From Anaerolineae bacterium (GTDB lineage: Bacteria; Chloroflexota; Anaerolineae; Promineifilales; Promineifilaceae): 64,000 nucleotides of DNA. Where the stretch lies: positions 248,001 to 312,000 of the forward strand of contig JAMLHW010000003.1 of assembly GCA_023954475.1 (NCBI GenBank). Direction: 5' to 3'. A program made the position numbers and the translations under genes. The notes below the pieces were generated by a model. The model was not told the origin of the DNA, made no database searches, and worked only from the letters and a program-made list of their open reading frames with translations. Positions 56,137 to 63,660 of the stretch are shown here, piece by piece (the first letter of the stretch is position 1; every line of letters begins with the position of its first letter).

Positions 56137-56400
56137 CACGAAACAGTCGCAAGCGTATCCTTTGTGAGTTGGTTTTGGGTGATTTGGGATGGATTATCCG
56201 TAATTGTTTCTCGATGAACCCTCGATTGCATTGATAAGTGGAGATTAATTCGGCTTATTACACCAATAGAACTGTTTATACAGGTGGATATTCGGACTAT
56301 ACCGATAATTAAGTGGTGATGCCGAACATCATTCGGCATAATAATTGTTAGCGTGCCATAGCAAGCACATAATCAAATAAAGTTGAAATCAAAAAATAAA
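56137..56400. other. AT-rich intergenic region at the left edge of the foreign island
   Basis: No gene is seen. Base composition becomes AT-rich from about 56150. TGCCGAA (about 56319) and TTCGGCA (about 56331) form a small hairpin. GTTAGCG (56347-56353) is complementary over six bases to GCTAAC at 59789-59794, which suggests the left boundary of a cassette-like insertion. Confidence 0.45.
56347..56353 (+). other. Possible left boundary (GTTAGCG) of a cassette-like insertion
   Basis: GTTAGC here matches the reverse complement of GCTAAC at the outer end of the attC-like site at 59789-59893. In integron cassettes the cassette's own first bases complement its R'' box in exactly this way. A six-base match is weak evidence on its own. 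Confidence 0.35.
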
Positions 56401-57250
56401 ATGACACATTTCAGTCAACTCGAAAATATTCCACAACTCGGCTATTTCCTTAGATATCGTTACTGGAAAAATGCGGTCAAACTGCTCCACTATCAGCTAG
56501 ACATTAAAAATAGAAACCGTCATTTTAATACTCTGAGTATGTTTTATTACGAGGAATTAGGAAAAAAGACAAAAAAACTAAAGAATAAAAAATATTTCAG
56601 GAAGAGAATAGCAAACAACCTATTCTATGGGCTAGAAGAAGAATTCGCTATATACCCATATCCAATACCTAAATCAAATCTTGGCTTGCGTAACTACAAA
56701 TTCCTCACTTATCCATTGAGACTAGTTTACTATTCGGTAGCGCTTTATATCTTGGATCTTTCACAAGAGGTAATCAGAGATTACTATTTAAAATATAAGC
56801 ACCTTCATGCTGACTATGGCGGCAAACTTTTTTTTGATGACGACAAAAGGAATCTAATTCTTAACTACGATAGCATTTGGTACAAACCTCATTACAAACG
56901 CTTTCGCGCAACTGTTCGAAGAGAAGTAAAGGACAACTTGGAAAATAAGATCGTTATTCATATCGACATCCAAAACTACTATGACGAAATTTCAATCCCA
57001 ATCCTTTTAAATTTTTTGAGCAACTATGTGAAGCCGAGTATCCAAAGAGAAATGCGGTTCGATGCAATTTCACAAGGGCAAATAACTGCGTTTTTTAAAT
57101 TTCTAGGAAATGGTAGCTTGGGTATTCCTCAAAGTGATAATGATATCACATCTAGCTATCTAGGATTTTTGTATCTTGCTTTCGGAGATTTACTTCTAGA
57201 CCAAGAAATCTCTAAGACTTACGAAATTGTCGAGAGCCATCGAATTATCA
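56401..57250 (+). pseudogene. Abi-type reverse transcriptase, N-terminal part, interrupted by an IS
   Basis: About 283 residues of a reverse transcriptase resembling AbiA/AbiK-type defence RTs. The N-terminus is Lys/Tyr-rich, then YPLRLVYYSVALYILDLSQ leads to RT motif A (VIHIDIQNYYDEIS, Asp195 counted from TTG 56383, 189 from this ATG) and motif B-like GNGSLGIPQSDNDITSSYLG. The frame enters the IS at 57251, just after ESHRII, where the YxDD motif is expected next, and stops inside the IS. The rest lies at 58739-59774. AT-rich codon use and the absence of TCGGCCGA mark it as foreign. ATG 56401 is chosen; TTG 56383 is also in frame. Confidence 0.7.
57245..57250. repeat. Target site duplication, left copy (TTATCA)
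   Basis: TTATCA directly precedes the IS left end and is repeated at 58739-58744 directly after its right end. Confidence 0.8.
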
Positions 57251-57405
57251 CCTTATTTTTGCGCAAAGAGAGCGCATTTCTACTATTTCATGCAAAGAGA
57301 GCAGGTTTCTACTCCGCAAATTGCAGCGTATTCCGTCAATTTCGAGCATTTCTGAGTCGAGCGGTCAAACTTCATTAGAATTAGGAACCTAATGGAGAGT
57401 GACCA

Positions 57406-57891
57406 ATGACGATCAAACTTGGACTGACAACAGAAAACATCAACACACAATACGCGCCGCTAGCGGCACTATTCGCACATTATCAACAGAATCAGGTCTT
57501 GAAACCGCTTGAACAGGTCATGATTCCCATGAAATCGGTCGAATTCAAGTCGATTGACAAGCTCGTGCAAGTATTTGTGAGCGTTTTAGCCGGTTGCCAG
57601 ACACTGTCACAAGTCAACCAAAGGCTCAAACCAGAACGACCGCTGGCACAAATCGGCGGCTGGCCACGCTTTGCTGACCAATCGGGGCTGTCAAGAACGC
57701 TGGATGCGCTAACGCTAACGAATATTGAGCAACTGCGTTCAACAACGCGTCAAATCGCGTGCCAATTCAGTCAAGCTCGCCAGCACGATTGGCGCGGCCA
57801 TCTGTGGCTGGACTTCGACTTGAGCGGTTTGCCATGTGGTCAACGGGCTGAAGCGAGCCAAAAAGGATACTTCAGCGGTAAAAAAACGTGA
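57406..57891 (+). CDS. IS transposase, upstream frame (DDE N-terminal part)
   Basis: A 161-codon frame containing the N-terminal part of an IS4-like DDE transposase: a helical DNA-binding region, then the first catalytic Asp area LWLDFDLSGLPCGQRAE. It ends in SGKKT at TGA 57889-57891. Seven A residues (57880-57886) lie directly before the stop. A -1 slip there enters the downstream frame, which overlaps by 4 bp and carries the remaining catalytic residues. Confidence 0.8.
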   Translation: MTIKLGLTTENINTQYAPLAALFAHYQQNQVLKPLEQVMIPMKSVEFKSIDKLVQVFVSVLAGCQTLSQVNQRLKPERPLAQIGGWPRFADQSGLSRTLDALTLTNIEQLRSTTRQIACQFSQARQHDWRGHLWLDFDLSGLPCGQRAEASQKGYFSGKKT

Positions 57892-58679
57892 CAGGACGGC
57901 AGTTGGCGCGTGTCAACACGGTCAAATACGGTGAAACGCTGTGGTCAGAGCTGTATCCGGGCAATCAGCATACGGTCAACTGTCTGCAACCTGCCGTGAC
58001 AGCGACCGAAAGTTCATTAGAGTTAGCCCAAGCTCAGCGTCAACGCACCGTATGGCGGTTTGACGGCGGGGCTGGCAGCGATGAACAGTTCCAATGGCTC
58101 TTCAACCGTGGGTATCACGTTGTTGGCAAAGGGCTATCCAACTTCCGCGCTTGTGCGCTTGCACAGCAAGTACGCCGTTGGGACAGCTACGCTGATTGTC
58201 AATTGGGCGAGGTGACGCCCCCCATTGATTACGGTCGCCCTGTGCGCGTTTTCGTCAAACGCCGACTCAAAAAGGACAAATGGCGGCACAGCTACTACGT
58301 TACTTCACTCCAATTTCCTTCCAAAGGGCTGTTCATGACGGCGTACAACCAGAGAGGTGGTGCCGAGGTTGAGCAATTTCGGCAAGACAAACAAGGCTTG
58401 GCTTTAGCTGCTCGGCGTAAGGCATCGTTGAATGGTCAGAAAGCGTGCGTCCTGTTGACCGACTTGGCTCACAATCTGCTGACTCACTTCAGCCGCCATG
58501 CTCTGGCCGAATCACGCTTCAGGGCTTTTGGTTTGAAGCGCATTGTCCGTGACCTGCTTCACATTCCAGGCGCACTCCATTTTGAGGGCGTAAGAGTGAA
58601 AAAGGTCGAGTTGCTAACTCTAAACCAAAATTCGCGAGACCTGATTATTTGCTTGGAAAAGTACATTTCTGGCGGGTAG
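57888..58679 (+). CDS. IS transposase, downstream frame (DDE C-terminal part)
   Basis: A 263-codon frame beginning GTG ACA at 57888. It continues the transposase core: TVKYGETLWSELYPGN, the second catalytic Asp in WRFDGGAGSDEQF and the Glu in YNQRGGAEVEQFRQDK, followed by helices. By itself it lacks the first Asp, so a functional protein requires fusion with the upstream frame by the -1 shift at A7. Confidence 0.8.
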   Translation: MTGRQLARVNTVKYGETLWSELYPGNQHTVNCLQPAVTATESSLELAQAQRQRTVWRFDGGAGSDEQFQWLFNRGYHVVGKGLSNFRACALAQQVRRWDSYADCQLGEVTPPIDYGRPVRVFVKRRLKKDKWRHSYYVTSLQFPSKGLFMTAYNQRGGAEVEQFRQDKQGLALAARRKASLNGQKACVLLTDLAHNLLTHFSRHALAESRFRAFGLKRIVRDLLHIPGALHFEGVRVKKVELLTLNQNSRDLIICLEKYISGG

Positions 58680-58738
58680 AAATCGCCGCTCTTTGCACGT
58701 AGGGGGTAGAAACCCGCTACTTTTGCACAAAATTAAGG

Positions 58739-58744
58739 TTATCA
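58739..58744. repeat. Target site duplication, right copy (TTATCA)
   Basis: Identical to 57245-57250, on the other side of the IS. Confidence 0.8.
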
Positions 58745-59774
58745 GATATGGACGATATATCGGTTACGATATGAAAGTCTCGGGCAGAGGAAGTGTTGGA
58801 TTCACTTTCTGCCAGATATGGTCGACATGAGAAGCGGGACTTAGCGGCACAAAACTGATTGTTTTGGCTCGATGACGACAAATCGGGTAAAGATTTTTCG
58901 CTGATTTGAAAGGTGCTCTCTGGCTGAAACCTGGATGGTGAAACAATATCATCAAGGAAAGTGTGACAGATATTGCCCAGCTGGAAGGCCAAAGCGCCCG
59001 CCGGATCGTCGCTGGATTTACATCAGGATCTTTGAATCAGAAATTCTAAAGGAAGTCTATACGCCAAGTGTAAGCCAGCTTTTGAAAAAGGCAGATAACA
59101 AGGCAAGGATCAAACACATATTCACAGATTTCAATTTTGATTTAATAATTGCTCAACCTAGGGAGATCCTGATAGTTTTACTGCATGACAGAGACGCTGA
59201 TAAAGCTTTTAGAAAATTCCTTATTTCTAAACGAAATCTAACTTCCCGCGAAGTTCATCTAATATTGACATATCTTTGCCAAACTGAGTTTAAATCCGGC
59301 AAATTGAAAAAGTCGCTTCGAAAAAGCCGACAATTAAAGAAAATTATGGAGATTTACAAATACGGGAAAATCCCCTCAAAATTACCAGGTTATTTTGGAT
59401 TGGATGCTAAACAAGTTATGAAACTCTCCAAGATGCACAATGTTATCGAGCAGGCGAGGTTACGGGTATTGTCGGAACGTCAAAATCAATATTCTGTTGC
59501 TCTTAATCACTTGCTCAATGAAATTCATGCAGTTTGCTTCAAACTTGATCCTCGGGAAATAAATGAAAAACAATATGATGCTTTAAAAGCTATTGAGTTC
59601 CTTATAACAGACTGTCAGGTTCCACACGAAACTTGCATGAAAATTCGCAATTTGTTTGATCGCCGTAACAAGAATCCTGTTTCTCATGCAGATCCAATAG
59701 CTTGGCCTGTAAGTAAAGAGGAATATTATGATTACCACAATCACGTTGGAAACTGCTTACGTCACATTCTTTGA
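58739..59774 (+). pseudogene. Reverse transcriptase C-terminal part with HEPN-like motif, decayed
   Basis: Right after the IS all three frames are broken for about 200 bp. In one frame the first codons read SDMDDISV, close to RT motif C (YxDD), just where it is expected, but shifted relative to the N-terminal part. From about 58935 a long frame runs to 59774 (up to 279 residues): helical, Lys-rich, with HIFTDFNFDLIIAQPREIL and, near the end, LFDRRNKNPVSHAD. The R-N-x5-H spacing fits the HEPN ribonuclease motif. RT plus C-terminal HEPN is the AbiA architecture of abortive-infection RTs. It is very unlikely to be expressed as a functional protein now. Confidence 0.6.
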
Positions 59775-61919: not shown

Positions 61920-62840
61920 TTAGGGCTTAGATGAGGTGATTAATTCTCTTCTGGGAGTTGGAGTGGAAGTCACGGCTACTGTCTCATCACCTGATGCAAT
62001 GGATATCTGTGAAATTTGCGAATTTGAGGGTAATTGGTCCTCTACAAGAGGTAAGGATATCAAATTGCTTTCCGGAATTGCCGCTTTCGATATGGTTAAC
62101 GGTGTTGGCGTAGCGGTATGTCTTGCTATGGCAACTTGAGTCGGTACCGTTTCCGGTGTTTGAAGAGAAAATTGAACTACGTTTACACAGTCAAGCGTAC
62201 CGTCCTCAGCTTTCAATAACTCGGCCCAGATCCACCCCACTTGTTTATCGTCTGGCAGAAGAACATGAAACCACAATTGACTTTCAAGTGTTCCCAACAA
62301 AATGACAGGATCACCTGAGTTCAGTTTGGCAACAATATTGCCTTCGTCAACAATGGGTTCTTCACGAACATTGGCGCGGTTATTGATAGAAGTGTCAACT
62401 GTTGCAATGAGGAGTTTGTCCGTAAGCATTTGAGGACATGTCTGTGCTAGCGTAGTTGCATCCACAGTTGCTGTTGAAATGTTGGGAGTAGGAGTATTTG
62501 TCAGTACTGGTACTTCATCTTTGTCCGGTTTGTCAACCATATTTTCAAACAGTGATGATACATGCTCATCAACAGATGATAGCTGCATATCAAGCCAAAT
62601 AACAGCTTGTTCATACGTGTAAGGTAAATCGAGACGCCGGAGAACAACGCCTCCGATGAGAGCTAAAGCTGCATGAAAAACTGCTACTTTAAGACGATCA
62701 AGAGCGTCCTCCCATACCTGTTGTATTCTGTTTCTAAGTTCAGTAGGATCCCTACTAACAGCATTGTTCTCTGCTGAATTATTCGTAACAATACCCAATC
62801 TGAATCTGTCATCTAGACCGGTAACTTGTTCTGTATCCAT
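61920..62840 (-). CDS. Membrane-anchored protein with bacterial SH3-like domain
   Basis: A 306-residue protein. It has an N-terminal cytoplasmic helical region (~1-50), one membrane helix around AVFHAALALIGGVVLRR (~53-70), a Thr-rich linker and an SH3b-like domain (~145-215) with INNRANVREEPIVDEGN, VILLGTLESQLWFHVLLP and VGWIWAELL. The last ~80 residues are disordered and Thr/Ser/Pro-rich. It probably binds cell-wall material. It is more AT-rich than its neighbours and lacks TCGGCCGA. It is convergent with the eIF2B-like gene. Confidence 0.7.
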   Translation of the reverse strand: MDTEQVTGLDDRFRLGIVTNNSAENNAVSRDPTELRNRIQQVWEDALDRLKVAVFHAALALIGGVVLRRLDLPYTYEQAVIWLDMQLSSVDEHVSSLFENMVDKPDKDEVPVLTNTPTPNISTATVDATTLAQTCPQMLTDKLLIATVDTSINNRANVREEPIVDEGNIVAKLNSGDPVILLGTLESQLWFHVLLPDDKQVGWIWAELLKAEDGTLDCVNVVQFSLQTPETVPTQVAIARHTATPTPLTISKAAIPESNLISLPLVEDQLPSNSQISQISIASGDETVAVTSTPTPRRELITSSKP

Positions 62841-63240
62841 GAGGCAACCAACTGAAAATAGTCAACTGGAAATTGCAGTCAATACACGACATAAGGTTTT
62901 TGCTTTCACGGAATGCTATCTTGATTGAAGATTGCCAAACCTGTAACAACTATACGCCATTTTGAGCCAAAAAGTTGCTCAATTTCAGAGAGAACAGTTG
63001 TGATAATGATAGAGTACACTCTTAATACATATGTTGAATGTGCAGTGTCACACCAAAAAGAATATATGTTCTAATTTTAGCACATAGTTGTATCCTTAGC
63101 AAATGTCAGAATTGCCCTAATATAGTTTTTCCAAAGTCAAAGGCGAACAAAGTAGCAGTTGGGATTGAACCTTGTCACTACATAGAAGATCTTGTATAGC
63201 TTCAGCACAATACCTTTTCTGACGACGTGTTACAATTCTC
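62841..63240. other. AT-rich intergenic region without a recognisable gene
   Basis: 400 bp between two minus-strand genes. I see no convincing open frame, RNA gene or long repeat. It presumably holds the promoter of the SH3-domain gene. Its AT-rich composition matches that gene rather than the genes beyond it. Confidence 0.4.
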
Positions 63241-63660
63241 TCACTCCCCGATCAATTGTACGACCAACTGCCGCCGCCGTGCGCGATTGTCAAAGTCGAC
63301 AAACACGATTTGCTGCCATGTACCCAGTGTCAAACGTCCATTGATAAATGGTACCGTCAACGACGGCCCCAACAGCGCCGCCCGCACATGGCTATGTCCG
63401 TTCCCATCACCCCAGCGCGCGTTGTGGGCATAATGGCGGTCGGGACTGGCGATCTCGTCAAAGAGCCGCTGCAAATCGGCAATGCAGCCCGACTCATACT
63501 CGATCGTCGTTAGCCCGCTGGTTGCTGAAGGCGAAAACAACGCCACAATACCGTGGCGCAATGGCGACTGTGCCACGCTCTGCGCCACCGCATTGGTTAC
63601 ATCGACAATGTGTCCAATGCCCTGTGTCTCAAATTCGATTTGGCTATTGATAACTGTCAT
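63241..63660 (-). CDS. YjbQ/UPF0047 family protein
   Basis: A 139-residue protein matching YjbQ: the core HNARWGDGNGHSHVRAALLG followed by PSLTVPFINGRLTLGTWQQI and VDFDNRARRRQLVVQ. YjbQ from other bacteria has thiamine-phosphate-synthase-like side activity. I start it at 63660 (MTVINSQIEF), since the family has no N-terminal extension; the open frame reaches 63786. No TCGGCCGA copy. Confidence 0.88.
   Translation of the reverse strand: MTVINSQIEFETQGIGHIVDVTNAVAQSVAQSPLRHGIVALFSPSATSGLTTIEYESGCIADLQRLFDEIASPDRHYAHNARWGDGNGHSHVRAALLGPSLTVPFINGRLTLGTWQQIVFVDFDNRARRRQLVVQLIGE

What the first reader, a model, noticed from the sequence alone, without database searches (positions are those of the whole stretch)
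56401..59774. Abi-type reverse transcriptase with HEPN-like C-terminus, broken by an IS
The N-terminal part has RT motifs A (HIDIQNYYDE) and B (GIPQSDNDITSS); the C-terminal part ends with an R-N-x5-H HEPN-like motif. Known AbiA-family defence RTs combine these domains. The IS landed precisely before the YxDD motif. Loss of a toxic abortive-infection gene by insertion fits the known cost of such systems; restored, it may represent a new Abi-RT branch.
Basis: partly seen in the sequence, partly recalled or inferred. Interest (0 to 1): 0.75.

Follow-up and report, generated by a model that had tools for sequence, protein, structure and literature searches.

The report
Broken AbiA phage-defence polymerase pseudogene
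A bacterium of the phylum Chloroflexota carries a dead copy of AbiA, an already known phage-defence enzyme that makes DNA without a template; the copy was split by a mobile element just before its catalytic motif and damaged next to it, so it is an ordinary member of a known family that no longer works.

Summary
Window 56401-57250 and 59040-59774 are the two ends of one AbiA-family gene (Abi reverse transcriptase + helical + HEPN). They match NCBIfam TIGR04499 in order (profile 1-242, E 1.4e-54; 360-615, E 3.9e-40). Intact relatives of about 640 aa exist in Chloroflexota, Cyanobacteria, Nitrospirota and Bacteroidota; the closest, from a Nitrospirota MAG, is 55% / 57% identical. A model of that relative matches the solved Lactococcus AbiA (8OZ7) over its full length. 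An IS1380-like element (57251-58738, single copy in the genome) with a 6-bp target duplication (TTATCA) sits immediately before the RYxDD motif. The gene was horizontally acquired (GC3 34-36% against 58-70% in neighbouring genes) and died recently: both ends keep about 95% of family-invariant residues. 'New Abi-RT branch' is not supported, and loss because of toxicity is unproven. The one oddity is that all the damage is confined to 295 nt beside the IS.

The parts
56401..57250 (+). 5' part of abiA: fingers and palm of the RT-like domain up to the two residues before RYxDD (283 codons open; TTG at 56383 is an alternative start; the frame runs on into the IS and stops at 57378)
   Evidence: TIGR04499 E 1.4e-54, profile 1-242; PADLOC AbiA E 2.2e-40; 55% identical to intact AbiA of a Nitrospirota MAG
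57245..57250 (+). target-site duplication, left copy TTATCA
   Evidence: read directly
57251..58738 (+). IS1380-like insertion sequence, 1488 bp, imperfect terminal inverted repeats beginning CCTTA
   Evidence: inverted repeats and target duplication; only copy in the genome
57406..57891 (+). transposase, N part; frame changes at an A7 run near 57880
   Evidence: NF033539 IS1380 E 4.6e-5; collinear with the single-frame relative L041
57888..58679 (+). transposase, C part
   Evidence: NF033539 IS1380 E 5.5e-18; Pfam DDE_Tnp_1_4 E 5.3e-9
58739..58744 (+). target-site duplication, right copy TTATCA
   Evidence: read directly
58745..59039 (+). damaged middle of abiA: remains of RYxDD, end of palm, priming-loop region and start of helical domain; several frame breaks and stops, about 50 nt short, GC 46%
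   Evidence: frame-aware profile score 66.9 vs shuffle mean 35.8, max 53.6; DNA alignment to L032 scores 191 vs shuffle max 141
59040..59774 (+). 3' part of abiA: helical domain and C-terminal HEPN-type domain with RNKNPVSH (R-x6-H); mechanical ORF starts at 58935
   Evidence: TIGR04499 E 3.9e-40, profile 360-615; 57% identical to the Nitrospirota AbiA; weak HEPN-type fold hits

Best explanation
This is a recently inactivated, horizontally acquired abiA gene. When intact, the protein would be a stand-alone Abi polymerase: an RT-like fingers/palm domain without thumb, an alpha-helical domain in the thumb's place, and a C-terminal HEPN-type domain that makes the dimer. By analogy with Lactococcus AbiA it would start DNA synthesis on its own tyrosine, make untemplated single-stranded DNA that stays covalently bound, and block phages by that activity. 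Here an IS1380-like element inserted directly before the catalytic RYxDD motif, and the next 295 nt, which encode that motif and the priming-loop region, are full of small insertions, deletions and stops. No polymerase can be made. Shown: family, order of the parts, insertion point, target duplication, damage. Inferred: mechanism of the intact protein, and that the host no longer benefited from the gene.
For: Both pieces hit AbiA models in the right order. No other AbiA in the genome. Intact ~640-aa relatives with RYVDD or RFVDD and RRNxNxxSH. N and C pieces separately group with the same relative, L032 of Nitrospirota (support 97/97 and 99/97), so they are halves of one gene. Model of L032 (pLDDT 83.8, pTM 0.87) matches 8OZ7 Lactococcus AbiA first and over full length (E 3.4e-14, TM 0.65-0.71). 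IS ends and target duplication. Middle segment homologous but broken. Recent death: 55/58 and 46/48 family-invariant residues kept and no frameshift in 849 + 735 nt. Foreign origin: GC3 0.36/0.34 against 0.58-0.70 in neighbouring host genes, and placement outside the Chloroflexota AbiA clade.
Against: Defence activity of this particular branch was never tested. Pfam RVT_1 and HEPN models miss the window's pieces. The model of the window's C piece gives HEPN structures only as weak hits (prob 0.63-0.69). The sharp confinement of damage to 295 nt is not what slow neutral decay predicts.
Confidence: 0.92

Rival explanations
1. The IS and/or the damaged segment beside it are assembly or sequencing faults, and the real cell has an intact or less damaged abiA.
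For: All frame breaks lie in 295 nt next to the IS and none in the 1584 nt around them; if spread evenly the chance is about 6e-4 for four breaks. The transposase also has a one-base frame change at an A7 run.
Against: Clean 6-bp target duplication and inverted repeats argue for a real insertion. The damaged segment differs in GC (46% against 35-36%) and in many substitutions, which sequencing noise would not readily give. The genome is 97.9% complete in 26 contigs, and the six neighbouring genes checked give ordinary matches.
Confidence: 0.06
2. The split is functional: the two open halves are kept as separate proteins, or the IS is a reversible switch that leaves by precise excision.
For: Both halves are open, keep about 95% of invariant residues, and the C half has its own ATG at 58935.
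Against: The catalytic RYxDD lies in the damaged segment, so excision alone would not restore the enzyme. Third-codon GC of both halves has not moved towards the host, so they have not been kept long in this host. The transposase is in two frames and the IS is single copy.
Confidence: 0.02
3. A new branch of Abi/UG reverse transcriptases rather than AbiA.
For: The closest intact relative is only 13% identical to Lactococcus AbiA over the structural alignment; the family profile finds no AbiA chain in the PDB by sequence.
Against: Intact relatives score 387.6 and 378.9 bits against the TIGR04499 cut-off of 250, AbiA is the best PADLOC model by far, and AbiA is the best fold match.
Confidence: 0.02

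Closest known systems
AbiA family abortive infection protein (NCBIfam TIGR04499; PADLOC AbiA PDLC03741)
   Same: Both window pieces match in order; intact relatives match over their whole length above the curated cut-off.
   Different: The window copy is split by an IS and its RYxDD / priming-loop region is destroyed.
Lactococcus lactis AbiA, PDB 8OZ7 (PMC11077055)
   Same: Three-domain fold over full length; RYVDD in relatives; HEPN motif RNSNPVSH in Lactococcus, RNKNPVSH in the window.
   Different: About 13% identity over the structural alignment of L032; different bacterial phylum; window copy not functional. Lactococcus AbiA is plasmid-borne; this one is on a 556-kb contig between housekeeping-type genes.
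AbiK and Abi-P2 polymerases (7R06/7Z0Z, 7R08)
   Same: RT-like core and helical domain; lower-ranked fold hits.
   Different: They lack the C-terminal HEPN domain (PMC11077055).
AbiA of Herpetosiphon giganteus DSM 589 (L039/L006) and of a marine Chloroflexota MAG (L034/L005)
   Same: Also broken abiA genes in Chloroflexota; the second is interrupted by an IS1380-like element as well.
   Different: Different break positions: one frame break after RYVDDIY in Herpetosiphon, insertion near residue 370 in the MAG.

Membership tests
AbiA (TIGR04499) | Match to the curated AbiA model | tested here: met
   Pieces E 1.4e-54 (profile 1-242, 185.9 bits) and 3.9e-40 (360-615, 138.2 bits), each below the whole-protein cut-off 250 because the gene is split; intact relatives 387.6 and 378.9 bits
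AbiA (TIGR04499) | RT-like domain with motif A aspartate, motif B and R-Y/F-x-D-D | tested here: met
   Motifs A and B in the window N piece; RYVDD, RFVDD, RFMDD, RYTDD or RYIDD in intact relatives; in the window the RYxDD codons are only partly readable and out of frame
AbiA (TIGR04499) | Helical domain followed by C-terminal HEPN-type domain with R-x(4-6)-H | tested here: met
   RNKNPVSH at the end of the window C piece; all-helical model; R and H of the motif conserved in relatives
AbiA (TIGR04499) | Fold of Lactococcus AbiA | tested here: met
   Model of the closest intact relative: 8OZ7 chains are hits 1-4, TM 0.65-0.71
AbiA (TIGR04499) | Dimerisation through HEPN, protein-primed untemplated DNA synthesis, phage defence | not testable with these tools
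   Known for Lactococcus AbiA (PMC11077055); the priming-loop region lies in the damaged segment of the window
New Abi/UG RT branch | Falls outside named Abi/UG groups | tested here: not met
   AbiA is the best PADLOC model at 136.8 bits, the next, RT_UG9_large, has 38.3 bits
IS1380-family insertion sequence | Match to the IS1380 transposase model | tested here: inconclusive
   E 5.5e-18 and 4.6e-5 for the two parts but 64.8 and 22.2 bits against a cut-off of 180; called IS1380-like only

The most novel reading that the evidence does not exclude
The mutations in the 295 nt beside the IS arose by a focal process (error-prone repair at the IS end, or recombination with a long-dead abiA copy) that destroyed exactly the catalytic and priming segment while leaving both flanks intact.
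Probability: 0.15. Interest if true: 0.35.

Novelty: new member of a known kind. Interest (0 to 1): 0.18.

Why it matters
It adds a dead copy to the spread of AbiA in Chloroflexota. Among the five Chloroflexota copies here whose state can be judged, three are broken (two by IS1380-like elements, one by a frame break), against none of the six full copies seen in other phyla. That is a small-sample hint that AbiA is often lost in this phylum, not a result. The intact relatives listed here are usable for testing whether this distant AbiA branch defends against phages.

Tried and rejected
Pfam gives no RT or HEPN match to either piece; the families are too diverged. Viral contigs (three scans) and phage records hold no relative; plasmid records hold only weak RT-type matches. 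PHROGs none. Rfam finds no RNA near the gene. PDB sequence search with the family profile does not find 8OZ7; the fold search does. I looked for a conserved gene partner in the relatives' flanks and found none. I first suspected a recurrent split at RYxDD as programmed recoding, because several relatives end there, but two of those are contig ends and only Herpetosiphon is a true frame break. I considered TGA recoding in the damaged segment because the stops seen in one frame are TGA; rejected because the best alignment needs several frame changes as well.

Full report
What is there. On the + strand, 56401-57249 is open and encodes the first 283 residues of an RT-like protein with motif A (HIDIQNYYDE) and motif B (GIPQSDNDITSS). 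A 1488-bp insertion sequence follows at 57251-58738. It has imperfect terminal inverted repeats (CCTTATTTTTGCGCAAA / CCTTAATTTTGTGCAAA) and a 6-bp target duplication TTATCA at 57245-57250 and 58739-58744. Its transposase is related to IS1380 (E 5.5e-18 for the larger part, under the curated cut-off) and is split in two frames at an A7 run; a relative in another genome, L041, is in one frame. The IS is the only copy in the genome. After it, 59040-59774 encodes an all-helical end with DRRNKNPVSH.

Family. Both pieces match the AbiA model TIGR04499 in order: profile 1-242 (E 1.4e-54) and 360-615 (E 3.9e-40). PADLOC's AbiA model gives 2.2e-40 and 2.1e-29, far ahead of other reverse transcriptase models. 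There is no other AbiA in the genome. Intact relatives of about 640 aa were found in other Chloroflexota, and by a scan of genome contigs in Cyanobacteria (Nostoc, Microcystis, Paraprochloron), Nitrospirota, Bacteroidota and a Cloacimonadales bin. They read R-Y/F-x-D-D and RRNxNxxSH. The window copy is closest to the Nitrospirota one, L032 (55% and 57%). Trees made from the N and C pieces separately both place it with L032 (97/97 and 99/97), so the pieces are halves of one gene. The AlphaFold model of L032 (pLDDT 83.8, pTM 0.87) has Lactococcus AbiA, 8OZ7, as its four best matches over full length (TM 0.65-0.71, 13-14% identity). The window's own C piece gives HEPN structures only weakly (2hsb prob 0.69, 1ufb prob 0.63; that 1ufb is a HEPN protein is from my own knowledge).

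Where it is broken. In relatives the sequence at the insertion point is I-I-R-Y-V-D-D; the window's N piece ends after I-I. The IS is thus immediately before the catalytic motif. It is not: relatives have 345 nt between RYxDD and the start of the intact 3' part, the window has 295. This segment is abiA-derived (frame-aware profile score 66.9 against shuffle mean 35.8, sd 5.3, max 53.6; DNA alignment with L032 191 against shuffle max 141), but the alignment needs several frame changes and passes several stops. It covers RYxDD and the loop that, by position, holds the priming tyrosines in Lactococcus AbiA (PMC11077055).

Age and origin. GC at third codon positions is 0.36 and 0.34 in the two halves, like L032 (0.33), against 0.58-0.70 in neighbouring host genes. 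With the tree, this says the gene came from outside and had little time to adjust. Both halves keep 55/58 and 46/48 residues that are invariant in the other members, and neither has a frameshift or stop. So inactivation is recent. The neighbours are a tyrosine recombinase, a short-chain dehydrogenase, a NUDIX hydrolase, a DinB protein, a DUF1801 protein and an IF-2B-type protein. No defence gene lies next to it among those scanned, and no conserved partner was found in the relatives' flanks.

How it would have worked. From work on Lactococcus AbiA (PMC11077055): a dimer held by the HEPN domain, DNA synthesis started on a tyrosine, untemplated single-stranded product, defence dependent on the polymerase active site and on the priming tyrosines; the R-x6-H motif can be mutated without loss of defence, no RNase activity was seen, and defence probably does not rely on cell death. 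So the idea that the HEPN motif marks a toxic nuclease, and that the gene was lost because of it, has no direct support. That the same mechanism holds for this branch is inference.

What is not explained. All frame breaks lie in 295 of 1879 nt. If lesions fell evenly, four in that segment would have a chance of about 6e-4. The segment's GC is 46%, against 35-36% in the rest of this gene, while the relatives have no such difference between segments. Neutral decay would have hit the flanks as well. Selection to keep the flanks as separate proteins is unlikely because their third positions have not moved towards the host. An assembly fault, error-prone repair at the IS end, or recombination with an old dead copy remain open; no other copy of the segment is in the genome.

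A hint. Of five Chloroflexota abiA copies whose state can be judged, two are intact (L026/L023, L028/L004) and three broken: this one, L034/L005 (IS1380-like element near residue 370) and Herpetosiphon giganteus DSM 589 (frame break right after RYVDDIY). Outside the phylum six full copies are intact, leaving aside the Cloacimonadales copy, which may be a Chloroflexota contig in the wrong bin. The numbers are too small for a claim.

Verdict. A real and correctly spotted feature; a pseudogene of a known defence family. New member of a known kind, low interest.

Noticed in passing
58745-59039: Damage focal to the right of the IS: several frame breaks, stops, raised GC, while both flanks of the gene are clean. 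Cause unknown.
   Followed up: partly
L034:7100-9240 (same place as L005): Another abiA gene, in a marine-biofilm Chloroflexota MAG, is interrupted near residue 370 by an element with a 700-aa IS1380-like transposase ORF that carries a long coiled-coil-like stretch.
   Followed up: partly
L039:6800-6850 (same place as L006): abiA of Herpetosiphon giganteus DSM 589 is split in two overlapping frames right after RYVDDIY, next to an ATATATAT tract and an A7 run.
   Followed up: partly
57870-57900: The IS transposase changes frame (-1) at an A7 run, at a point where a relative reads through in one frame; programmed frameshift or decay cannot be told apart.
   Followed up: partly
L027: An AbiA 75% identical to the Chloroflexota one sits in a contig labelled Cloacimonadales; it may be a binning error or a recent transfer.
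   Followed up: no
62200-63300: Second GC-poor stretch (0.39-0.43) in the window, with no clear gene in part of it.
   Followed up: no
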